From Desulfurivibrio alkaliphilus (lineage in GTDB: Bacteria > Desulfobacterota > Desulfobulbia > Desulfobulbales > Desulfurivibrionaceae): a stretch of DNA of 32,356 nt. How positions within the stretch are numbered: position 1 is the first letter of the stretch; every line of letters begins with the position of its first letter. Below the pieces are notes generated by a model. It was given only the letters and a program-made list of their open reading frames with translations, did no database searches and was not told the origin of the DNA. The stretch is taken from positions 1-32,356 of the forward strand of contig DSDS01000138.1 of the NCBI GenBank assembly GCA_011048585.1, in the 5' to 3' direction. Positions 1,943 through 16,559 of the stretch are shown in pieces. Position numbers and translations under genes: made by a program.

Positions 1943-3832
1943 TCAGCCGCTCAGTCCCAGGGCCAGACGCTTGCCGCTGATCCTGGCATCCAGCAGTTCG
2001 GCGGCCTTGAGCGGATCGGCCTCCACCACGAAACTGGCCCCCACCAGTCCCTCCAGGCCGTGCAGGGCCAGATCGGTCACGGTTTTCGACCCGAGGATAT
2101 TGGGGGGCAGGCCCAAGTGGGTGTAGATACCGCTGGCCACGGCGTAAAGCCCGATGGCAGCGGCCTTTTCCGAATACCATTCCGGCGAGGAAGCCCCCAC
2201 CGGCAGATCGGAGATATCCACTCCCAGTTCCCGGGCAATCAGGGCACAAAGATGAATAATCCGGGAGTTGTCAACACAACTGCCCATGTGCAGCACCGGC
2301 GGGATCCCAAGGGCAGCGCAAACCTCCTTAAGACCCGGGCCCGCCAGGGAAGCGGCCTCGGGCAACAGTAACCCGGCCTTACCGCAGGCGGTGGTGACGC
2401 AGCCGGTGACCAGCACCAAGATATCTTTTTCGATCAGGGCCCGAGCCAGCCCGAGGTTGCAGGAATCCTGCCGCAACTTGGGGTTGTTGCAGCCGACGAT
2501 GGCGACAAACCCCCGCACCTTGCCCGCCTTGACCGCCTCCAGCAGGGGGGTCAGGCTACCGCCCAAGGCGGCAAGCAGGGCCTCGTTGCTGAAACCGGTC
2601 ACCATCTCCAGGGAGGGGCCGGGAATCTCCACCCGCCGGGGGTCACGCCGGCTGAACTGGCCGATGGCGATCCTGACGATCTCCTTGGCCTGGGCCAGGG
2701 CGGTGGCCGGCTTGATGTCGAAATGGATCGCCCCGGTGAAGCGGGCCTTGTTGGCGGTGGTGATAAATTTGGTGTGATAGCAGGCGGCGGCCTGGACCAG
2801 ACTGGGCATGATGCACTGGTAGTCTACCACCACCGCCTCCACCGCCCCGGTGACGATGGCCAGCTCGGTCATCAGGTGGTTGCCGGCCATGGGAATGCCC
2901 CGGCGGGCCAGAATTTCGTTGCCGGTGCAGCAGAGACCCGCCACATTGATCCCTGCGGCCCTGGCGGCGGCGGCTTCGGCCAGCAGCTTCGGGTCGTTAG
3001 CTGCCTCGACAATCATCTCGCTGACCACCGGATTGTGGCCATGGACCAGGATATTGACCTGATCCTGGCGTAAAACCCCCAGATTGACTCGGGCCATTTT
3101 CGGAGTCGGGGTTCCGAAGATCACATCGGAGAGCTCGGTGCCGATCATCGACCCGGCCCAGCCGTCGGAAAGCGCGGTTCGGGCGGCATGGATCAGGGTG
3201 CTGGCCGCATCGTTGTCGCAACCCATATGGGTCCGGTGCATCATCTCGGCGATCTCCCGATCCACCCCCCGGGGCGTCATCCCCAGCCGGCGCCAGATCT
3301 CCTTGCGCTTTTCCGGCACCCGGCAGAGAAAGGCGACCTCGCGCTTGCGGGAACCGAAATCGCCATAAAGCAATTCCAGCAACTCCCGGCCGACCTCCAG
3401 CAGATCCCGGTCCTCTACTGCAATCCCCAGCTCGGCGGCGAGCCGCCGCATTTTGCCTTCATCGCTAATCCGATAATCGCTGGTTTCCCCGGTGACGATG
3501 GCCTCCAGCACCTCAACGAGATCCCGGCCATGGTCGGAGTGGCCGGCCGAGCCACCGGCAATGAAGCGCCCGAAGTTGCGGGCCACGATCACGTCGGCGT
3601 CGGCCCCACATACCCCCCGCACCATCTTGCTCCCCTCCTTGTCGCTCACCCTACAGGGACCCATCACGCAATTACGGCAGGTGGTGCCCAATTCGCAGAA
3701 TTTGCAGTGGGGGGTTTGGGTTTCCAGGCGATCCCAGGCGGTTTCAACTCCGTCCCGCTCCGCCTTGGCCAGCATTTTGCCGGCATCTTCCCAAATGGTT
3801 TTTTCTGCAATGGTCATTTTTTTCGGGGCCAT
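1943..3832 (-). CDS. cooS: anaerobic carbon-monoxide dehydrogenase catalytic subunit (Ni-CODH)
   Basis: 629 aa with CKFCELGTTCRNCVMGPCR and C-cluster motifs HGHNPVVSE, CCTGNE, VDYQCIMPS, VGCNN, TGCVTTACG, HMGSCVDNSR. RBS-like gggagga precedes the ATG. Confidence 0.95.
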   Translation of the reverse strand: MAPKKMTIAEKTIWEDAGKMLAKAERDGVETAWDRLETQTPHCKFCELGTTCRNCVMGPCRVSDKEGSKMVRGVCGADADVIVARNFGRFIAGGSAGHSDHGRDLVEVLEAIVTGETSDYRISDEGKMRRLAAELGIAVEDRDLLEVGRELLELLYGDFGSRKREVAFLCRVPEKRKEIWRRLGMTPRGVDREIAEMMHRTHMGCDNDAASTLIHAARTALSDGWAGSMIGTELSDVIFGTPTPKMARVNLGVLRQDQVNILVHGHNPVVSEMIVEAANDPKLLAEAAAARAAGINVAGLCCTGNEILARRGIPMAGNHLMTELAIVTGAVEAVVVDYQCIMPSLVQAAACYHTKFITTANKARFTGAIHFDIKPATALAQAKEIVRIAIGQFSRRDPRRVEIPGPSLEMVTGFSNEALLAALGGSLTPLLEAVKAGKVRGFVAIVGCNNPKLRQDSCNLGLARALIEKDILVLVTGCVTTACGKAGLLLPEAASLAGPGLKEVCAALGIPPVLHMGSCVDNSRIIHLCALIARELGVDISDLPVGASSPEWYSEKAAAIGLYAVASGIYTHLGLPPNILGSKTVTDLALHGLEGLVGASFVVEADPLKAAELLDARISGKRLALGLSG

Positions 3833-3932
3833 GGATTCCTCCCTTGCTTGACTTTTTTGCCGGCGATTGACCCAGCCATTCTACCCGCCCAAGCCGACAA
3901 TATCACATCTTAATCCCTCAACGCTTTTACAG

Positions 3933-3961
3933 TTTACGACCGGCCGGCTTTCGGGTATATA
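3933..3961 (+). promoter_or_regulatory. candidate sigma70-type promoter for ilvC
   Basis: TTTACG (3933-3938), 17-nt spacer, TATATA (3956-3961), about 85 nt upstream of the ilvC start. Confidence 0.4.
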
Positions 3962-4032
3962 ACACGATTCGTCCTTTTTCCCGGATTACCAGCCGAGCAA
4001 ATTTAATTGCCATGCGCGCATAAGCCAAATAG

Positions 4033-5520
<1,488 letters not shown>

Positions 5521-5550
5521 GCCTTTTGCGGGCGCAAGCCTGGAAATTCA

Positions 5551-5597
5551 AACGCAAATCGCCCGTCACGATTGAACTTTGACGGGCGATTTGCGTT
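5551..5597. terminator. bidirectional terminator-like hairpin between convergent ilvC and the response regulator
   Basis: Perfect 18-bp inverted repeat aacgcaaatcgcccgtca (5551-5568) / tgacgggcgatttgcgtt (5580-5597) with an 11-nt loop. Confidence 0.75.
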
Positions 5598-6165
5598 ATT
5601 CCAGCTCTTTTTTGGCGACTTCGAAACAGGTCGGGCAGTAGGAGTGGCTGGGCCGAATACCCGCCTTGCGGGAGAGGTACTGCTCCATGCTCAGCCAGGG
5701 GCCGCTGCCCGGCTCCCGCCCCTCGTCGTCGCGGATCTTGCCACAGACCGCGCAGACCGGCAGGATATCCTCGTAAAGTTTGATCCGTTTCTTTAAAGCT
5801 CGTCTTTCCAGGCAGATATTGACCCGCACCTGCAACTCTTCAAAACGATAGGGTTTGAGCAGGTAATCGTCGGCTCCCAGACGAATCGCCTCGATGGCCG
5901 ACGGCAGAGCGCCGTAACCGGTGAGAATAATCACCCCGATATCAGGCTCCTCCTCCCGCAGGCGGCGCAGAAGTTCCAGTCCATCCATCCCCTCCATCAA
6001 CAGGTCGGTTATCACCAGCCCGAAAGAACCGGGAGAAAATAGCCGCAGGGCCTCGTCCCCGCTGGCCGCCGTCTCCACCTGGTAACCCGCCTCGGTGAGA
6101 TCCAGGGCCAGGCTGGCCCGAATCAGATCTTCATCGTCAACCAGCATGATTTTCTGCTTTTTCAT
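5596..6165 (-). CDS. response regulator: receiver domain plus C-terminal zinc-ribbon-like domain
   Basis: MKKQKIMLVDDEDLIRASLALDLTEAGYQVETA...VITDLLMEGMDG...ILTGYG...LLKPY, then CAVCGKIRDDEG...YCPTCFEVAKKELE (CxxC...CxxC). The start overlaps the kinase stop. Confidence 0.88.
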   Translation of the reverse strand: MKKQKIMLVDDEDLIRASLALDLTEAGYQVETAASGDEALRLFSPGSFGLVITDLLMEGMDGLELLRRLREEEPDIGVIILTGYGALPSAIEAIRLGADDYLLKPYRFEELQVRVNICLERRALKKRIKLYEDILPVCAVCGKIRDDEGREPGSGPWLSMEQYLSRKAGIRPSHSYCPTCFEVAKKELE

Positions 6166-7856
6166 CTTTTGTCCCGCTCCTCCGTAAGCGGCAGCCAAAC
6201 CGTGAAAGAGGTTCCCCTGCCCGGCTCACTCTCCACCTCGATGCGGCCACTGTGGCGCTGAATGATGCCGTAGCTGACCGACAAGCCCAGGCCGGTACAT
6301 TTAACCGCCGGCTTGGTGGAGAAAAAGGGCTCATAGATATGGGCCAGGTCGTCAGCGGCGATCCCGCTGCCGGTATCGCTGATCCGCACCATCACCTCGC
6401 CGTCGACCAAACCAGTGCTGATCTGGATCTCGCCCCCCTCGGGGCCGATCGCCTCCCGGGCATTGGTCAACAGGTTGAGAAAAACCTGCTTTAGCTGATC
6501 GGGCACCGCCTTGACCCAGGGCAGATCGGGGTAAAAATCCCTCCGCACCTCGATCCTGGCGTTCTGCATATCTTTTTTGCAGAGCAACAGAATATCTTCC
6601 AGGGCAACATGGAGGTCCAGCAGGGTGGTCTTGGCCGAAGTGGGCCGGTTGAAGCTTTGCAGATCGTTGGTCAGCCGGGCCACCCGATCGCACTCACGCA
6701 CCGCCATGTCCACCAGTTTCCGATCGCCGCCGGCCAAGGGCAACCGCCGGCGCAGGCCATGCAGCACGTTACGGATGCCGCAGATCGGGTTATTGAACTC
6801 ATGGGCTATGGAGGCGGCCAGCTTACCCACCGCGCTCAGTTTTTCCGAGTGGAGCAGTTGCCGGTAAAGTTTTTCCACCTCCGCCGTCCGTTCCGCCACC
6901 CGCCGCTCCAGAACATCGTGGGAAAGCTGGAGATCCTCTTCGATCTTCTTGCGCCGCTCCACCTCGGCCTGGAGTTCGCGGTTTCTCTGGGCCAGTTCCG
7001 CGGTCTGGCGGCTGATCTCCTGCTCCAGCTGCCACTGGTAGCGATTGCGAATATCCTCCACCCTTTTCCGCTCGGTAATATCCTGAACCACCAACCAGCA
7101 GGAACTGCCGTCGCCACCGGCCTGGGGCAACAGAGAAACCAGGACCTGGGCTTCTCCCAGGAAAAGGGAACTCTCCTCCCCTAAAATCAGCGGCTGCGGG
7201 CCGCCCGTATCCATCGCCGTGGCCAGCAGGGGCAGGGCCTCCCCTCGCAAGTACTGGAAAAAATCGTTGGAAAGCAGCTTCTCCTCGGCGACCCCGACCA
7301 TCGAGGTCACGGCCCGGTTGGCAAAGACAATCCGGCGCTCTTCCCGGTTCAGCTGCACCACCCCGTCGGTCATGTTCTGCAAAATAGCGTCGAAGTAGTG
7401 GCGAACGTTGAGCAACTCCCGGGTGATATCCCGCCGATGGAGCTCTTCCCGACCCAGAACCCGATCGCCAACCACCCCGGGCTGTTGGACAAACTTCACC
7501 AACACCTCGCGGATATTGCCCTTGAGCTGGGCAAAAGGTCCTTTGGCGATACAGGCATCGGCCCCCAGGGCGCGAAAATCTATATCCACGTCGGCAGCCA
7601 CCGCCGATAGCACAACCAACCGTACCCCCTGCAGATCGGGGATGGTCCTGATTACCCGGCAGAGCTTATCCCCGCTGATGTTGGGCATGATCAGGTCAAC
7701 GAAGATCACATCGGGCCGAAAACTCTCCAAGACCCGCATGGCATCCAGGCCGTCGGCGGCACTTTTGACCTCGTACCCCTCCTCGGCCAAAAAGTGGCAG
7801 ATCAACTTGACAATCACCGGGTTGTTGTCCACCACCAGGATCCGTTTAATCGCCAT
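6162..7856 (-). CDS. hybrid sensor histidine kinase (N-terminal receiver - PAS - HisKA - HATPase)
   Basis: MAIKRILVVDNNPVIVKLI...VIFVDLIMPNISG; PAS-like segment; SEKLSAVGKLAASIAHEFNNPICGIRN (H-box); VFLNLLTNAREAI (N-box); GTGLGLSVSYGIIQRHSGRI-type G-box. Confidence 0.9.
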   Translation of the reverse strand: MAIKRILVVDNNPVIVKLICHFLAEEGYEVKSAADGLDAMRVLESFRPDVIFVDLIMPNISGDKLCRVIRTIPDLQGVRLVVLSAVAADVDIDFRALGADACIAKGPFAQLKGNIREVLVKFVQQPGVVGDRVLGREELHRRDITRELLNVRHYFDAILQNMTDGVVQLNREERRIVFANRAVTSMVGVAEEKLLSNDFFQYLRGEALPLLATAMDTGGPQPLILGEESSLFLGEAQVLVSLLPQAGGDGSSCWLVVQDITERKRVEDIRNRYQWQLEQEISRQTAELAQRNRELQAEVERRKKIEEDLQLSHDVLERRVAERTAEVEKLYRQLLHSEKLSAVGKLAASIAHEFNNPICGIRNVLHGLRRRLPLAGGDRKLVDMAVRECDRVARLTNDLQSFNRPTSAKTTLLDLHVALEDILLLCKKDMQNARIEVRRDFYPDLPWVKAVPDQLKQVFLNLLTNAREAIGPEGGEIQISTGLVDGEVMVRISDTGSGIAADDLAHIYEPFFSTKPAVKCTGLGLSVSYGIIQRHSGRIEVESEPGRGTSFTVWLPLTEERDKR

Positions 7857-9259: not shown

Positions 9260-10276
9260 ATGCCCCGCTTAAGCCAGCCACTCCTGGTTATCCAGGATCA
9301 GCATTTCCTCCAGCACGACACCGGCCCGGATCATCCGGAGGGTTCCTGGCGTTTAACCGCCATCGCCCAGCGCCTGCGGACCGGTTTGTTGGCCGACCGT
9401 GTCGCCATCTTTCCCTCCCGGTCGGCCCGGCGTCAGGAACTGACGGCGATCCACGATGAAAACTATCTGCTCCGTTTCGAGGAGGCGGCCCTGACCGGCC
9501 GCAGCTATCTCGACCATCCCGACAACCAGATCTGTTATGATAGTTACCAGGCCGCCCTGCTGGCCGCCGGCGCCGGACCGGCCGCCATCGATCTACTGGA
9601 GGCGCGCCAAGGTTGCGCCGCTTTCGCGGCGGTGCGCCCCCCCGGCCACCATGCCGAAAGGGCGATGGCTTTGGGTTTCTGTTTTTTCAACAACGCGGCG
9701 GTGGCGGCCCGCTACTGGCAAAACCGTTACCAGCGCCGCCGGCTGATGATCATCGACTGGGATGCCCACCACGGCAACGGAATCCAGGCCGCCTTCGAAG
9801 AGGATCCGGAGGTATTTTATCTCAGCATCCATGAACACCCGACCTGGAGCTTTCCCGGGACCGGCTGGGGCGAGGAGCGGGGCAGTGGGTCCGGGCGGGG
9901 GACCACGCTCAACCTGCCCCTGCCACCGGGGTCTGATGACGCGGCGGTATTGCGCCTGGTCAGCGAAAAGGTGGAGCCGGCCCTGGCCCAATTCCAGCCC
10001 CAGGCCCTGATCATCGGCGCCGGCTTTGACGGCCACCGAGACGATGATATGTCCGGACTGGCGTACAGCAGCCAGCTCTATGGGCGACTGGGTCGGTTGG
10101 CCGCCTCCTGGGCCGGCCGCTACTGCCCCGGCCGGCTGCTTACCCTGCTGGAAGGGGGATACCGGCCCGATATTCTGCCCTTGACGGTTGAAAACTACCT
10201 TGCGGGCCTGCTCGCCGAACAGCCGCCGACAACCGACAGCCAAACCGATTCGAACCAGCAAAGGGAAATGCCATGA
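9260..10276 (+). CDS. histone deacetylase family protein (HDAC/AcuC/acetylpolyamine amidohydrolase superfamily)
   Basis: HPEGSWRLTAI, VRPPGHHAERAMALGFCFFNNAAVAAR, IIDWDAHHGNG, YLSIHEHPTWSFPGTGWGEERGSGSGRGTTLNLPLPPG, IIGAGFDGHRDD, LLEGGY. The HH pair and the D/H/D metal ligands all appear present. Confidence 0.93.
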   Translation: MPRLSQPLLVIQDQHFLQHDTGPDHPEGSWRLTAIAQRLRTGLLADRVAIFPSRSARRQELTAIHDENYLLRFEEAALTGRSYLDHPDNQICYDSYQAALLAAGAGPAAIDLLEARQGCAAFAAVRPPGHHAERAMALGFCFFNNAAVAARYWQNRYQRRRLMIIDWDAHHGNGIQAAFEEDPEVFYLSIHEHPTWSFPGTGWGEERGSGSGRGTTLNLPLPPGSDDAAVLRLVSEKVEPALAQFQPQALIIGAGFDGHRDDDMSGLAYSSQLYGRLGRLAASWAGRYCPGRLLTLLEGGYRPDILPLTVENYLAGLLAEQPPTTDSQTDSNQQREMP

Positions 10277-10917
10277 AGATCAGTCAGCACATGACCCGGC
10301 CGGCGGTGACCGTGCCACCGGAACTCACCATCTCCGAAGCGCGCGAGTTATTACGCTCCCACCATTTTCGTCACCTGCCAGTGGTTGATGGGGAGGGTAC
10401 CCTGCTGGGGATAGTCACCGATCGTGATCTGCGCTCGGCCTACCCCTCCACCATCCTTGAAGAGGCCGAGGGCAAGGCCCGCCTCCAGGATCTGGCCCGG
10501 ACCCCAGTCAGTTCCATCATGAGCCAGGGGATCTTCACCCTGTCGGCTGCCGCCACCCTGGATGACGCCCTGCTGCTGCTGGACCGGGAACAGATCGGCG
10601 CCCTGCCGGTGGTCGACGAGGGAGGCAAGGTGGTGGGCATTTTTTCCATCCGCGACCTGATGCGGGCCTACCGTAACCTGTTCGGCCTGGGGGAACGGGG
10701 TTCGGCCATGCTGTCCCTGCTCGATGACGGCCGGCCCCGCCCCCTGAGCCGCCTCTGCGCCGCCCTGGAACAGGCCGATATCCATTTCAACCGGCTGCTC
10801 AAGACCCAGACGGAAGATGGCCATAAAATTATTTACCTGCGCGTCAACACCTATAACCTGGCCGCGGTACACAAAGTTGCCGCCGCCGCCGGTTTCGAGC
10901 CCCATCGGGAAGAGTAA
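10273..10917 (+). CDS. CBS-domain pair protein
   Basis: MKISQHMTRPAVTVPPELTISEARELLRSHHFRHLPVVDGEGTLLGIVTDRDLR... and VSSIMSQGIFTLSAAATLDDALLLLDREQIGALPVVDEGGKVVGIFSIRDLM. ATGA overlap with the HDAC gene. Confidence 0.92.
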   Translation: MKISQHMTRPAVTVPPELTISEARELLRSHHFRHLPVVDGEGTLLGIVTDRDLRSAYPSTILEEAEGKARLQDLARTPVSSIMSQGIFTLSAAATLDDALLLLDREQIGALPVVDEGGKVVGIFSIRDLMRAYRNLFGLGERGSAMLSLLDDGRPRPLSRLCAALEQADIHFNRLLKTQTEDGHKIIYLRVNTYNLAAVHKVAAAAGFEPHREE

Positions 10918-10976
10918 ACCTAATCGTCTGCGGCCGTCGTCCCGCGAGACCCAGCGGATTGTAACGAGGTAAAAAT

Positions 10977-13073
10977 ATGTCGTCCCAACTACGCCCCCTG
11001 CTCTATCCAGCCAGCATCGCCATCATCGGCGCCTCGCGAACTCCAGGCAAGGTTGGCCATGATATCCTGGCCAACCTGCTGGCCGGCGGCTTCGCCGGGG
11101 AGTTGGTGCCGGTGAACCCGGCCGGCAGCGAAATTCTGGGATTGCCCTGCCTGCCCGAACTCAAAGGGGCGGGAAAGAAGATCGATCTGGCGGTGATTGC
11201 CGTGCCCCGGCCCCTGGTGGAGGGAGCAGTCACCGACGCCCTGGCCGCCGGGGCCGGAGCGGTGGTGGTGATTACCGCGGGCTTCAAGGAGATGGACGCC
11301 GAGGGGGCGGCCCTGGAAAAAAGGCTGGCCTCCCTTTGCACCGCCCGTCAGGCCAGAATGCTGGGTCCCAACTGCCTGGGCCTGATTAACAGCCGGCACC
11401 GGATGAACGCCTCCTTTGCCGCCAAAATGCCCACGCCCGGCAATATTTCGGTGATCTCCCAATCCGGAGCCCTGGCCACCGCCATCCTCGATCTGGCGGC
11501 GGGCCGCCACCTGGGCCTGGCCAAGCTGATCAGCATCGGCAACAAGGCGGATATCAGCGAGGTTGATCTGCTTTCGGCCCTGACCACCGATCCCGACTCC
11601 CGGGTGATCATCGCCTACCTGGAGGATATCAGTTCCGGGGAGGAGTTTATCAAGGCGGCCACCGAAACCAGCAGCCAAAAGCCGGTGGTGATCCTCAAGT
11701 CCGGCACCACCGCCGCCGGCCAGCAGGCGGCCTCCTCCCATACCGGAGTCCTGGCCGGAGCCGACATCGCGTACGGCGCCGCCTTCCGCCGCTCCGGAGT
11801 GATCCGGGCCGACACCTTTGAATCGCTCTTCGATTACGCCACCGCCTTTGCCATGCAACCCCTGCCGGCCGGGGATCGGGTGCTGATCATCACCAACGCC
11901 GGCGGTCCCGGCACCATGGCCGCCGATGCCGTCGAACAGGCGGGAATGAAGGTGGCGGTGCTGGACAGCAACACTGCCGCCGCCCTCCGCAGCAAGCTGC
12001 CCCGGGCCGCCAGCGTCGGCAATCCCATCGACGTGCTGGGGGATGCCGAACCGGAACGTTACGCCACGGTGCTGACCGCCGCCCAAAATGATCCGGCGGT
12101 GGACGCCATCGTGGTGATCCTCACCCCCCAGGCGATGACCAGGCCGGCGGAGACCGCCCGGGCCATCGCCGCCTGCCTTAAAGGTGACAAGCCGGTGGTG
12201 GCCGCCTTCATGGGGGGCGAGGATGTCCTGCCCGGCCGGGCCGAACTGGTGGCCGCGGGGCTGCCCGACTACCCCTCGCCGGAACGGGCGGTGGCCGCCC
12301 TTAAGGCGATGCATGAATACGCCTGCTGGCGCAAGCGACCACCGCGGGTGGTCACCAGGTTTCGGGTCAACCGCCGACGGGTGGAGCGGATCATCACCCG
12401 CCGGCTGCGCAGCGGTCACAGCCAGTTGGGCGAGGTCAAGTCCAAGAGCGTACTGGCGGCCTACGGCTTTCAGGTGCCGGAGGGCTATCTGGCCACCTCC
12501 ACCGAAGAGGCGGTGGAGGTGGCGGAACGGATCGGTTTTCCGGTGGCCCTCAAAATCGTCTCTCCCGATATCATCCACAAATCGGATCTGGGCGGGGTCC
12601 GGCTTAATGTGATCGACGCCGCCGCCACCCGGGATGCCTTCGATCTGATGATGTTGCGGATCAGACAAAATGCCCCCAACGCAATGGTGGAGGGGATCTA
12701 CGTGGAGAAGATGCTGAACAAGGGGCTGGAGGTGATCATTGGCATGAGCCGCGACCCCCAGTTCGGACCGATGCTGATGTTCGGCCTGGGCGGCATCTTT
12801 GTCGAGGTGATGAAGGATGTCACCTTCCATCTGGCCCCGATCAGTGAAGCCGACGCGGTGATGATGCTGAAATCGACCCGCTCCTATGAAATTCTCGAGG
12901 GCCGCCGGGGTCAGCAAGGGGTGGACCTGGTGGCCATCGCCCAGGGATTGCAGCGGATCAGCCAGTTGACCACCGATTTCCCCCAGATCATCGAGCTGGA
13001 TATCAACCCCTTTATCGTCGGTGAGATCGGCCGCCCACCAGTGGTGGCCGATGCCCGCATGACCCTGAGGTAA
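10977..13073 (+). CDS. acetate/acyl-CoA ligase (ADP-forming), fused alpha and beta subunits
   Basis: LLYPASIAIIGASRTPGKVGHDILANLLAGGF, GPNCLGL, SVISQSGALATAILD, SSHTGVLAGAD (phospho-His region), ITNAGGPGTMAADA, then an ATP-grasp-like domain ending LDINPFIVG. Confidence 0.92.
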   Translation: MSSQLRPLLYPASIAIIGASRTPGKVGHDILANLLAGGFAGELVPVNPAGSEILGLPCLPELKGAGKKIDLAVIAVPRPLVEGAVTDALAAGAGAVVVITAGFKEMDAEGAALEKRLASLCTARQARMLGPNCLGLINSRHRMNASFAAKMPTPGNISVISQSGALATAILDLAAGRHLGLAKLISIGNKADISEVDLLSALTTDPDSRVIIAYLEDISSGEEFIKAATETSSQKPVVILKSGTTAAGQQAASSHTGVLAGADIAYGAAFRRSGVIRADTFESLFDYATAFAMQPLPAGDRVLIITNAGGPGTMAADAVEQAGMKVAVLDSNTAAALRSKLPRAASVGNPIDVLGDAEPERYATVLTAAQNDPAVDAIVVILTPQAMTRPAETARAIAACLKGDKPVVAAFMGGEDVLPGRAELVAAGLPDYPSPERAVAALKAMHEYACWRKRPPRVVTRFRVNRRRVERIITRRLRSGHSQLGEVKSKSVLAAYGFQVPEGYLATSTEEAVEVAERIGFPVALKIVSPDIIHKSDLGGVRLNVIDAAATRDAFDLMMLRIRQNAPNAMVEGIYVEKMLNKGLEVIIGMSRDPQFGPMLMFGLGGIFVEVMKDVTFHLAPISEADAVMMLKSTRSYEILEGRRGQQGVDLVAIAQGLQRISQLTTDFPQIIELDINPFIVGEIGRPPVVADARMTLR

Positions 13074-13078
13074 TAAAG

Positions 13079-14959
13079 ATGACCACCCATTTACAGACCA
13101 CCATCGACCCCGACTGGCGGCAACGATATCGGGACCTGCTCTGCGGCCCCGACCAGGCCCTTAGCAGGCTCAAGCCCGGCCAGCGGGTCTTCATCGGCAC
13201 CGCCTGCGCCGAACCTTCCGCCCTGGTCCAGGCCCTGACCCGGCGGGCCGGAGAGCTGGCCGACGTGGAGATTGTCCAGGTGCTCACCAAAGGGGATGCC
13301 TCCTACACCGCCAAGCAGCTCCACAACTGTTTTCACATCAACAGCTTCTTTATCGGCCGGGCGATCAGAGAGCATATCCAACAGGGCCTGGGCGATTACA
13401 CTCCCATCCTGCTTTCCGACATCCCCCGGCTCTTCTCCTCCGGCCAACTGCCCATCGACGTGGCCCTGATCCAGGTTTCGGAACCGGACAACCGGGGCAA
13501 GGTCAGCCTCGGGATTTCGGTGGACGTGGTCAAAAGCGCCACCGAAAACGCCTCCATGGTGATCGCCCAGGTTAACCCTCGAATGCCCCGCACTCTGGGC
13601 GATAGTTTCATCGACATTTATGATATTGACCTGCTGGTGGAGGTCGAAGAGGAGATCATCGAGCGCCAGTCCACGGTCCCCACCCCGGCGGCCCGGCAAA
13701 TCGAGGAGCATATCGCCGCCCTGATCGAGGATGGCTCGACCCTGGAGTTCGGCATCGGCCACATCCCCCACTCGCTGGTGGAGTTCCTTCGCGACAAACG
13801 GGACCTGGGGATCCACACCGAAATGGTTACCGACTCCATTCTGGAATTAATCGAGGCCGGGGCGATCAGCGGCGCCCGCAAAACCACTGATCGGGGCCGG
13901 ATTGTCACCAGTTTCTGCATGGGCTCCCGTAAACTCTACGACTTTGTCGACAACAATCCCCTCTTCAGCTTCCGACCCACCGAATATGTCAATGATCCCC
14001 ATATCATCAGCCGCCAGCACAAAATGGTGGCGATCAATATGGCCTTGGAGGTGGACCTGACCGGCCAGGTCTGCGCCGACTCCCTGGGTTCCTGCTTCTT
14101 TTCCGGCATCGGCGGCCAAATTGACTTCAACCGAGGAGCGGCCAGCGCCGTGGGAGGTAAGGCGGTAATCGCTCTGGAATCCACGGCCAAAAATGGTGAG
14201 GTCTCCCAAATCGTCACCCACCTGACCCCGGGAGCTGGAGTGGTGACCACCCGAGGGGAGGCCCACTACATCGTCACCGAGTACGGAGTGGCCTATCTCC
14301 ACGGCAAAAGCGTTCAGGAACGAGCCATGGCCCTGATCAGCATCGCCCACCCCAAATTCCGGGAAAAGCTGTTCCATGAGGCGCTGGCGGCCAAATATCT
14401 GCGTCGCGAGCTGGCTGACCTCGATGGTCGATTGCTGATGGTTTCCCAGGAGATGCAAACCTCAACCCTGCTCGACGACGGCACCCAGATCTCCTTCCGG
14501 CCGGTCCACCCCACCGACGAGCCCCGGATGCGCGACCTGCTCTACGCCCTCTCCCAGGAGACCTTGTATTACCGCTTCATGAGCGCCAGTGGCCGCTTCG
14601 CCCACCAGGAGATTCAGAATTTCGTGTATATCGATCACCGCAAGGACGCCGCCATCGTCGGCACCGTTCCTGAAGCCCATGGGGAGGATATCATCGCGGT
14701 GGGTCGCTACTATCTGGATGAAAAAACCAACCGGGCCGAGGTGGCCTTCGTCATCCGCGATGAATGGCAGAACCGGGGGATCGGCACCTTTCTCTTCAAA
14801 CATCTGGTGGGGATCGCCAAGCACAACGGCATCGCCGGCTTCACCGCCGAAGTCCTGCGGGACAACCGGCGGATGCAGGCGATCTTCAACCACAGCGGCT
14901 ACACCGTCCAGAGCAAGGTGGAGGGGGACGTCTACAGCTACAGCATCGATTTCGGCTGA
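13079..14959 (+). CDS. bifunctional acetyl-CoA hydrolase/CoA-transferase-like protein with C-terminal GNAT domain
   Basis: N-terminal CoA-transferase-like part (DYTPILLSDIPRLFSSGQLPIDVALIQVSEPDNRGKVSLG...GIGGQIDFNRGAASAVGGKAVIALEST...YIVTEYGVAYLHGKSVQERAMALISIAHP), then GNAT (RPVHPTDEPRMRDLLYALSQETLYYRFM...AEVAFVIRDEWQNRGIGTFLFKHLVGIAKHNGIAGFTAEVLRDNRRMQAIFNHSGY). Confidence 0.92.
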   Translation: MTTHLQTTIDPDWRQRYRDLLCGPDQALSRLKPGQRVFIGTACAEPSALVQALTRRAGELADVEIVQVLTKGDASYTAKQLHNCFHINSFFIGRAIREHIQQGLGDYTPILLSDIPRLFSSGQLPIDVALIQVSEPDNRGKVSLGISVDVVKSATENASMVIAQVNPRMPRTLGDSFIDIYDIDLLVEVEEEIIERQSTVPTPAARQIEEHIAALIEDGSTLEFGIGHIPHSLVEFLRDKRDLGIHTEMVTDSILELIEAGAISGARKTTDRGRIVTSFCMGSRKLYDFVDNNPLFSFRPTEYVNDPHIISRQHKMVAINMALEVDLTGQVCADSLGSCFFSGIGGQIDFNRGAASAVGGKAVIALESTAKNGEVSQIVTHLTPGAGVVTTRGEAHYIVTEYGVAYLHGKSVQERAMALISIAHPKFREKLFHEALAAKYLRRELADLDGRLLMVSQEMQTSTLLDDGTQISFRPVHPTDEPRMRDLLYALSQETLYYRFMSASGRFAHQEIQNFVYIDHRKDAAIVGTVPEAHGEDIIAVGRYYLDEKTNRAEVAFVIRDEWQNRGIGTFLFKHLVGIAKHNGIAGFTAEVLRDNRRMQAIFNHSGYTVQSKVEGDVYSYSIDFG

Positions 14960-14965
14960 AAAAAT

Positions 14966-15000
14966 GGAGAGAAAGGGCTTAACCACCGCCCTTTCTCTCC
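14966..15000. terminator. terminator-like hairpin between the acetylation operon (+) and the H1-like gene (-)
   Basis: Perfect 13-bp stem ggagagaaagggc (14966-14978) / gccctttctctcc (14988-15000), 9-nt loop. Six A's just left of it give a U-tract for the minus-strand transcript. Confidence 0.72.
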
Positions 15001-15031: not shown

Positions 15032-15688
15032 TCAGCGAGCCGTTTTCTTGCCTTTGGGAACGGCCTTCTTCGGGGCGGTCTTGACCGAAGTCTTCCTGGT
15101 CACCGCCTTCTTGGCCGGAGCTTTCTTGGCCGGAGTCTTCTTGGCCGACGCCGCCTTGGCCGGAGCCTTCTTGGCCGGAGTTTTTTTGGCCGCCGGGGCG
15201 CCGGCTTTCGCCACCTTGGTCGCCGCGGGCTTACGACCTCCCCGGGTGGCGGCCGGCTTCTTCAGGCCCAGGCGTTCGGCCTCCTTCTCCTGGCGAATCT
15301 GACAGGCCAGCTCAAAGGCCTTCTCCTGACCGTGGCGCCGGATGGAGATGGAGGTCTTGCCCTGCTTGCCCACCTGGTTGACCCAGCTTACCTCGTAGCG
15401 ATTCAGCTTTTCATTGTGCCGGACTCCGACCACCCCGGTCTTGGTATTGCTGACCGTCACGATATGCTTGTCGGTCCGAATTTTGCCCAGGCTGATCTCG
15501 GTCTGATCGCGCCAAGCCAGGGCGGCCAGCAAACTGGAATAGCGACCACCGTGTTTGCCGTCGGAAAAGAATTTGGCATGGGTCTTGCCCTGAAAGCGGA
15601 CACGCACATACCACCCGTGGGTCCTCTTGCTCTCCTGATCGATCCGGGCGACATCCTTGTGTTTTTCCAGTTTCGATCTCTTAACCAT
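15032..15688 (-). CDS. AP2-like DNA-binding domain protein with histone-H1-like Lys/Ala/Pro-rich C-terminal tail
   Basis: HGWYVRVRFQGKTHAKFFSDGKHGGRYSSLLAALAWRDQTE and TGVVGVRHNEKLNRYEVSWVNQVGKQGKTSISIRRHGQEKAFELACQIRQEKEAERL resemble AP2 units. The tail is AAKKTPAKKAPAKAASAKKTPAKKAPAKKAVTRKTSVKTAPKKAVPKGKKTAR. RBS aaaggaga precedes the ATG. Confidence 0.82.
   Translation of the reverse strand: MVKRSKLEKHKDVARIDQESKRTHGWYVRVRFQGKTHAKFFSDGKHGGRYSSLLAALAWRDQTEISLGKIRTDKHIVTVSNTKTGVVGVRHNEKLNRYEVSWVNQVGKQGKTSISIRRHGQEKAFELACQIRQEKEAERLGLKKPAATRGGRKPAATKVAKAGAPAAKKTPAKKAPAKAASAKKTPAKKAPAKKAVTRKTSVKTAPKKAVPKGKKTAR
15096..15191. repeat. imperfect short tandem repeats (ttcttggccggag-like) encoding the KK(T/A)PAKKAPAK tail
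   Basis: Visible series cttcttggccggagctttcttggccggagtcttcttggccgacgccgccttggccggagccttcttggccggagtttttttggcc. Confidence 0.7.
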
Positions 15689-16093
15689 CTTATTGTTCTC
15701 CTTTAGTTTTAGCTTAGCGTTGGGTCAGCCTGTAAAGCTCCTAGCGTAAACAAATCAATACAACAAGTACACCCTGCAAATTCCTGGCACCTTTCGGTTG
15801 CAACCCCTCTTTTCCGGGTTGAGCAAAAACCATATTCTGACAGAGCCTTGCAGTTCCCTATCACACACAGGCAATCTGCATACCAACAGCCCCGCAAACG
15901 GAATATTTTTTTAAACTCTTGTAATCACAAGCCATTGAATGATTTAACCCTTGCCCGCCAACTCCATCCGCAAACCTTACTGGTCTATTTTGTCGCACCT
16001 TGGGCAAATTCTGCCGCATGGGATGCGAAAAAAGTGTGGGAGGTCAACCAGGTTGCAATCTCTCGCCGGTCAGGTTAGCCTTGGCCAATCAAC

Positions 16094-16115
16094 CCCACCG
16101 GTTCCGCCCGGTGGG
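16094..16115. other. small stem-loop upstream of the mazG-like gene
   Basis: 8-bp perfect stem cccaccgg (16094-16101) / ccggtggg (16108-16115), 6-nt loop. Function unknown. Confidence 0.3.
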
Positions 16116-16151
16116 CCGGGATCATTATTAAACTCGCGCAACGAGGTCGTC

Positions 16152-16559
16152 ATGCCCCTCCATAATTCCGTCGATTCCTTCAGGCAGCTGGTCGAAATTG
16201 TCGCCCGACTCCGGGCCCCCAACGGCTGCCCCTGGGATCGCAAGCAGACTCCGGAAACCTTTAAACGATACTTGCTTGAGGAAACCCATGAGTTGCTGGA
16301 GGCCCTGGAGGGGGACAACCACGAGCACATTCGCGAAGAGCTGGGCGATCTGTTGTTCCAGGTACTTTTCCTCTGCCAACTCTACAGTGAGCAGGGAGCC
16401 TTCACCTTGGACGAGGTAATTGGTGGGATCAAAAGCAAAATGATCCGCCGCCATCCCCACGTCTTCGGTGACGCCAAGGTCGATTCGGAAGATGACTTAC
16501 GCCGCCAGTGGCTGGCGATTAAGGCCGACGAGAAAAAAAGCCGGACATTGGGCTCTTGA
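16152..16559 (+). CDS. MazG-like nucleotide pyrophosphohydrolase, single domain
   Basis: FRQLVEIVARLRAPNGCPWDRKQTPETFKRYLLEETHELLEALEGDNHEHIREELGDLLFQVLFLCQL is the classic MazG N-terminal signature. The ATG at 16152 gives 135 aa. Confidence 0.9.
   Translation: MPLHNSVDSFRQLVEIVARLRAPNGCPWDRKQTPETFKRYLLEETHELLEALEGDNHEHIREELGDLLFQVLFLCQLYSEQGAFTLDEVIGGIKSKMIRRHPHVFGDAKVDSEDDLRRQWLAIKADEKKSRTLGS

What the first reader, a model, noticed from the sequence alone, without database searches (positions are those of the whole stretch)
15032..15688. AP2-like domains fused to a histone-H1-like Lys/Ala/Pro tail
Two AP2-like segments (about residues 25-70 and 85-140) precede a tail of about 80 residues dominated by AKKTPAKKAPAK repeats. 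H1-like tails (AlgP, HctB, Hc1-type) are known in bacteria and AP2 domains occur in bacterial/phage proteins. Their combination suggests a DNA-compacting nucleoid protein with an added sequence-reading module.
Basis: partly seen in the sequence, partly recalled or inferred. Interest (0 to 1): 0.6.

Follow-up and report, generated by a model that had tools for sequence, protein, structure and literature searches.

The report
Tandem-AP2 protein with histone-H1-like tail
A small, strongly positively charged protein built from two AP2-type nucleic-acid-binding modules is kept almost unchanged, at the same chromosomal spot, in most families of one order of sulfur bacteria; one genus (Desulfurivibrio) has added a lysine-rich tail like that of histone H1, so the protein probably binds DNA, or possibly RNA, but nobody seems to have studied it.

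Summary
On the minus strand, 15032-15688 encodes 218 residues: two AP2-fold modules (residues ~12-67 and 84-140) and a disordered Lys/Ala/Pro tail (142-218) encoded by 15-bp repeats. Pfam detects only the second AP2; structure prediction shows both. The only solved structures matched with confidence are tandem-AP2 proteins: malaria SIP2 on DNA, and AP2 proteins of the Toxoplasma mitoribosome.

The interpretation needs turning round. The conserved element is the tandem-AP2 core, not the tail. Orthologues of ~140 aa occur in 108 of 193 genomes of the class, pairwise identity averages 77% (higher than neighbouring S18, DnaB, L9 and S6), and the gene stands head-to-head with mazG(-rpsF-rpsR-rplI-dnaB) in 80 of 82 genomes testable; the other two have the genes on different contigs. 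It is inherited vertically and was not found in phages. The H1-like tail occurs in only the three Desulfurivibrio members that carry the gene; unrelated basic tails recur on distant Balneolota relatives.

Best reading: a chromosomal, sequence-reading DNA-binding protein (local regulator or nucleoid protein) that gained an electrostatic tail. Rival: an rRNA/ribosome-associated AP2 protein. No binding was tested. New variant of a known kind.

The parts
15032..15688 (-). CDS of the tandem-AP2 protein with H1-like tail, 218 aa, pI 11.0, net charge +42
15488..15655 (-). N-terminal AP2-like module, residues ~12-67 (beta-beta-beta-alpha)
   Evidence: AlphaFold core model; no Pfam hit; similar to second module by hhalign
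15269..15439 (-). C-terminal AP2 domain, residues 84-140
   Evidence: Pfam PF00847 E=1.6e-11; model
15035..15265 (-). histone-H1-like Lys/Ala/Pro tail, residues 142-218, predicted disordered
   Evidence: sequence; pLDDT ~50; census
15105..15192 (-). 15-bp tandem repeat (5.9 copies) encoding the pentapeptide-like tail repeats
   Evidence: TRF
15698..15704 (-). Shine-Dalgarno sequence AAAGGAG, 9 bases before the ATG
   Evidence: read from the sequence
14966..15000 (-). perfect 13-bp inverted repeat followed by a T run on the minus strand: probable intrinsic terminator of the AP2 gene
   Evidence: read from the sequence; not reported by the pattern scan
15689..16151 (.). divergent intergenic region shared by the AP2 gene and mazG; candidate regulatory region
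   Evidence: the divergent arrangement is conserved in 80 of 82 genomes
16152..16559 (+). mazG (short form), head-to-head neighbour, followed by rpsF, rpsR, DUF2232, rplI, dnaB
   Evidence: Pfam; synteny

Best explanation
It is a chromosomal, vertically inherited nucleic-acid-binding protein. Its two AP2 modules (three-stranded sheet packed on a helix) most likely read DNA, as the tandem AP2 of malaria SIP2 does, and the protein acts as a regulator or nucleoid-associated protein of order Desulfobulbales, with the shared mazG/rpsF/dnaB divergent promoter region as the first candidate target. In Desulfurivibrio a disordered lysine-rich tail was added; it would bind the DNA backbone without sequence preference, raising affinity, residence time or DNA bridging around the sites chosen by the core. 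Shown: the two-module fold (predicted), the composition, the conservation, the synteny and the genus restriction of the tail. Inferred: DNA as the ligand, the target region and the tail's role.
For: AP2 Pfam hit above cut-off. Confident two-module model, whose only PDB matches at E<=0.001 are tandem-AP2 proteins, including SIP2 bound to DNA, 6sy0. Core net +15, pI 10.3; tail net +27. Core mean pairwise identity 77%, against 72% S18, 68% DnaB, 59% L9, 47% S6 in the same 18 loci. Divergent from mazG in 80 of 82 genomes, gaps 213-794 bp between the matched segments, an arrangement often seen for regulators. Tree follows families (18 label changes against 54 shuffled). Basic tails recur on distant Balneolota relatives, as expected if extra nucleic-acid contact helps the core. 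K/A tails with repeats bind DNA in AlgP (PMC9239181), and Hc2 binds DNA with lysine-rich pentamers (PMC2848022).
Against: No binding data. Best structural matches by E-value are rRNA-bound mitoribosomal AP2 proteins. No conserved operator word beyond A/T runs was found upstream across families. The protein is missing in a smaller same-genus genome and in most of family f11, where mazG-rpsF persist, so it is not needed for that operon to exist. Codon bias is unremarkable.
Confidence: 0.55

Rival explanations
1. Ribosome- or RNA-associated protein: the tandem AP2 core binds rRNA or another RNA (ribosomal accessory or assembly factor), and the lysine tail adds backbone contacts, as basic tails do on many ribosomal proteins.
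For: Top PDB matches are AP2 proteins of the Toxoplasma mitoribosome (9g6k_Lk E=4e-6, 9i05_Xn, 9hqv_Yn), described as rRNA binders (PMC11652630, PMC11742926). The gene is fixed beside an rpsF-rpsR-rplI cluster. Conservation is at or above ribosomal-protein level. In sister genera the mRNA has a conserved structured leader ending at the Shine-Dalgarno site, found only at this gene apart from one-mismatch matches, which would fit autogenous translational control.
Against: The Toxoplasma proteins belong to a eukaryotic lineage-specific family and contact rRNA mainly through added extensions (PMC11742926). The gene is divergent from, not inside, the ribosomal operon; it is lost in some complete genomes and duplicated in others; codon bias is below the ribosomal set.
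Confidence: 0.2
2. Narrow transcription factor that controls only the divergent mazG-rpsF-dnaB operon and itself.
For: Near-perfect conservation of the divergent pair with a 213-794 bp gap.
Against: No shared operator word found. A local regulator would not obviously gain a non-specific compaction tail. The operon survives in genomes without the gene. Such strong whole-length conservation is more than a single-target regulator usually needs (inference).
Confidence: 0.15
3. Remnant of a homing endonuclease or other mobile element whose AP2 DNA-binding part survived.
For: AP2 modules are common in phage HNH endonucleases (viral fold matches). A few scattered distant relatives and plasmid copies exist.
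Against: No nuclease domain. No phage or viral-contig relative. One fixed locus, vertical tree, strong conservation.
Confidence: 0.03

Closest known systems
AP2 domain proteins (Pfam PF00847): plant AP2/ERF, apicomplexan ApiAP2 (SIP2), bacterial 'AP2 domain-containing protein' such as WP_015405771.1 of Desulfocapsa sulfexigens
   Same: AP2 family match and tandem AP2 fold; the Desulfocapsa plasmid paralogue is 67% identical to the core
   Different: bacterial, stand-alone, ~140 aa core fixed beside mazG-rpsF; the Desulfurivibrio form carries an H1-like tail
Histone H1-like bacterial proteins: Chlamydia Hc2, Pseudomonas AlgP, Bordetella/Burkholderia H1-like proteins
   Same: Lys/Ala/Pro repeat composition, short repeat unit, predicted disorder
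   Different: the tail matches Hc2-type models only below cut-off; the folded part is tandem AP2, not AlgP's helical N-terminus; the tail is confined to one genus
AP2-type proteins of the Toxoplasma mitoribosome (mtAP2, e.g. chains 9g6k_Lk, 9i05_Xn, 9hqv_Yn)
   Same: closest solved structures to the core; small and basic
   Different: eukaryotic organelle proteins, 18-23% identity; the RNA role of the bacterial protein is untested
Lysine-repeat tails grafted on other DNA enzymes, e.g. actinobacterial topoisomerase I (PMC7398561)
   Same: a basic low-complexity tail added to a sequence- or structure-specific DNA binder
   Different: different core; lineage-specific independent origin

Membership tests
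AP2 domain (PF00847) | HMM score above the curated cut-off | tested here: met
   44.8 bits against 33.3, residues 84-137; the first module does not reach it
AP2 domain (PF00847) | three-stranded sheet plus helix fold | tested here: met
   both modules in the core model; PDB tandem-AP2 matches E 4e-6 to 3e-4
AP2 domain (PF00847) | sequence-specific DNA binding | not testable with these tools
   needs EMSA/DAP-seq
Histone H1-like protein HC2/Hc2 (PF07382, NF038052, NF038053) | score above the curated cut-off | tested here: not met
   23.2 against 40 bits; 17.9 against 135; 23.7 against 80
Histone H1-like protein HC2/Hc2 (PF07382, NF038052, NF038053) | Lys/Ala/Pro low-complexity repeats, disordered | tested here: met
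   15-bp repeat, 5.9 copies; pLDDT ~50
Histone H1-like protein HC2/Hc2 (PF07382, NF038052, NF038053) | repeat number varies within a species | not tested
   only one strain per species available; lengths differ between species
Nucleoid-associated protein | high abundance | tested here: inconclusive
   codon bias at the 36th-92nd percentile of background genes in seven genomes, below most ribosomal genes
Nucleoid-associated protein | DNA compaction or broad chromosomal binding | not testable with these tools
   needs microscopy/ChIP
AP2-HNH homing endonuclease | nuclease domain | tested here: not met
   no HNH or GIY-YIG family at significance
AP2-HNH homing endonuclease | mobility / phage association | tested here: not met
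   no phage or viral-contig relatives; fixed locus and vertical tree

The most novel reading that the evidence does not exclude
The tandem-AP2 core is an order-specific bacterial ribosome- or RNA-binding protein, autoregulated through a structured mRNA leader in some genera, a bacterial parallel to the AP2 proteins of the apicomplexan mitoribosome; the H1-like tail in Desulfurivibrio is an added RNA-contacting extension.
Probability: 0.15. Interest if true: 0.8.

Novelty: new variant of a known kind. Interest (0 to 1): 0.5.

Why it matters
AP2 proteins are best known as plant and parasite transcription factors, and bacterial ones are mostly seen in phage endonucleases. Here a stand-alone tandem-AP2 protein is a core chromosomal gene, more conserved than adjacent ribosomal proteins and the replicative helicase, with no assigned role. 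Desulfurivibrio adds a natural before-and-after experiment in which an H1-like tail was joined to an unchanged DNA- or RNA-reading core, so the effect of such tails can be measured directly. Cultured Desulfurivibrio strains exist, and a proteome is published for one of them (PMC12142623).

Tried and rejected
Homing-endonuclease or phage origin: no nuclease domain and no phage or viral-contig relatives. Anti-phage defence: no PADLOC match. Known RNA family in the divergent region: none in the window or in sister loci. Conserved operator by word counting over 31 upstream regions: only A/T runs exceed shuffles. Codon bias as a proxy for abundance: inconclusive. Hc2-type homologues elsewhere in this genome: none other found in the 78%-complete assembly.

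Full report
OBSERVATION. The coordinates 15032-15688 hold an intact 218-codon ORF on the minus strand, with a good Shine-Dalgarno site (AAAGGAG at 15698-15704) and, after the stop, a perfect 13-bp inverted repeat followed by T's on that strand (14966-15000; read, though the pattern scan did not list it). Pfam finds AP2 at residues 84-137 (E=1.6e-11, above cut-off). The N-terminal segment has no Pfam hit. Two AlphaFold runs show a second beta-beta-beta-alpha module there: full length with 27 rows, and the 143-residue core with 69 rows (mean pLDDT 88, pTM 0.68). The two halves resemble each other by hhalign (probability 74%, E=2.7e-5). The tail (142-218) is K/A/P-rich, predicted disordered, net +27, and encoded by 15-bp repeats.

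STRUCTURAL RELATIVES. Against the PDB the core has five matches at E<=0.001, and all five are tandem-AP2 chains: three from the Toxoplasma mitoribosome (9g6k_Lk, 9i05_Xn, 9hqv_Yn) and the two SIP2 chains on DNA (6sy0). That the mitoribosomal chains carry AP2 folds is taken from the papers on that ribosome, not checked chain by chain. TM-scores are low (0.31-0.48), probably because the relative placement of the two modules differs, so the match supports the fold of the modules rather than their arrangement. The mitoribosomal AP2 proteins are described as rRNA binders (PMC11652630), in one report mainly through extensions rather than the canonical DNA-binding face (PMC11742926). The fold alone therefore cannot decide between DNA and RNA.

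CENSUS. In a class-wide sample, 108 of 193 genomes hold the core; beyond the class it is rare (6 of 247 genomes in the phylum sample match, and four of those lie in the window's own order), with distant relatives in Balneolota and a few plasmids. Among 131 loci read through to the stop codon, a K/A-rich tail of 40 aa or more is present only in G000, G002 and G003. The other Desulfobulbales orthologues end within a few residues of the core; one divergent f11 protein has a 90-aa extension that is not lysine-rich. The closest tail-less relative (G005) ends LKSMKR. The three tails differ in sequence and length, and only the window's has the TPAKKAPAK repeats. So the tail arose within or just before the genus and evolves fast while keeping its composition. 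Among Balneolota relatives, several carry other basic tails, up to 112 aa (L258) and 46 aa (L253), so appending a basic tail to this core has probably happened more than once.

CONSERVATION AND SYNTENY. In 18 loci with the whole neighbourhood, mean pairwise identity is AP2 77%, S18 72%, DnaB 68%, L9 59%, S6 47%, DUF2232 32%. The gene is divergent from mazG, which leads into rpsF-rpsR-DUF2232-rplI-dnaB, in 80 of 82 genomes where both were located; the two exceptions have the genes on different contigs. The 82 genomes are those whose coordinates were copied from the printed tables of both searches. The tree of the core follows families (18 label changes against 54.3 in shuffles), though with 144 columns many forks are unresolved. 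In G004 (same genus, 1.7 Mb, complete) and in f11 genomes, mazG and rpsR are present without the AP2 gene. Paralogues occur in several genomes, one on a Desulfocapsa plasmid.

MECHANISM. Conserved basic and aromatic residues lie on both sheets (for example W26, R29, R31, K39, F41; R90, R97, Y98, W102, K111), as expected of two nucleic-acid-binding faces. I favour DNA as the ligand, because AP2 tandem domains are established DNA readers and because the gene faces a shared promoter region. I put about 55% on a DNA-binding regulator or nucleoid protein with broad action, 15% on a purely local regulator, and 20% on an RNA/ribosome role. The tail's role as a non-specific electrostatic clamp is inferred from AlgP and Hc2, for which DNA binding has been reported (PMC9239181, PMC2848022).

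TESTS THAT DID NOT DECIDE. Codon bias placed the core between the 36th and 92nd percentile of background genes and below most ribosomal genes, so it neither proves nor excludes an abundant protein. Word counts upstream found only A/T runs. In genera g4 and g5 the mRNA leader folds into a conserved structure ending at the Shine-Dalgarno site (22 pairs, two with two-sided changes). Exact copies of its signature occur only at this gene in the genomes searched, with a few one-mismatch matches elsewhere. The window's own leader lacks it.

The parts list was right, and the guess of a DNA-binding chromosomal protein is reasonable. The framing, a compaction protein with an added reading module, is reversed by the comparative evidence.

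Noticed in passing
L007:1432-1510 and equivalents in L009, L010, L012-L014, L016-L020: Conserved structured 5' leader (TGGCGCAGGGGGGGCC...CCTGTGCGAGGTGAG) before the AP2 gene in genera g4/g5, with its outer helix closing next to the Shine-Dalgarno site. No Rfam match; exact signature only at this gene. Possible autoregulatory leader.
   Followed up: partly
window 9260-14959: Histone-deacetylase-family protein, an ADP-forming acyl-CoA ligase-like protein and an acetyl-CoA hydrolase fused to a GNAT acetyltransferase lie close to this lysine-tailed protein's gene. Not found beside it in the sister-species loci, so probably coincidence.
   Followed up: partly
window 16152-16559: MazG is a short single-domain form (135 aa) in Desulfurivibrio and f12, against ~270 aa in other genera.
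   Followed up: no
L118 (G004) 3001-6189: A 1.7-Mb complete genome placed in the same genus lacks the AP2 gene; ilvC lies upstream of mazG-rpsF instead.
   Followed up: partly
L258, L259, L253, L251: Distant Balneolota relatives carry long lysine-rich C-terminal tails on the same kind of core, apparently independent of the Desulfurivibrio tail.
   Followed up: partly
L136 2138-3007, L137 1791-2582: Larger proteins with what look like three or more AP2-like segments (263-289 aa) in two f12 genomes.
   Followed up: no
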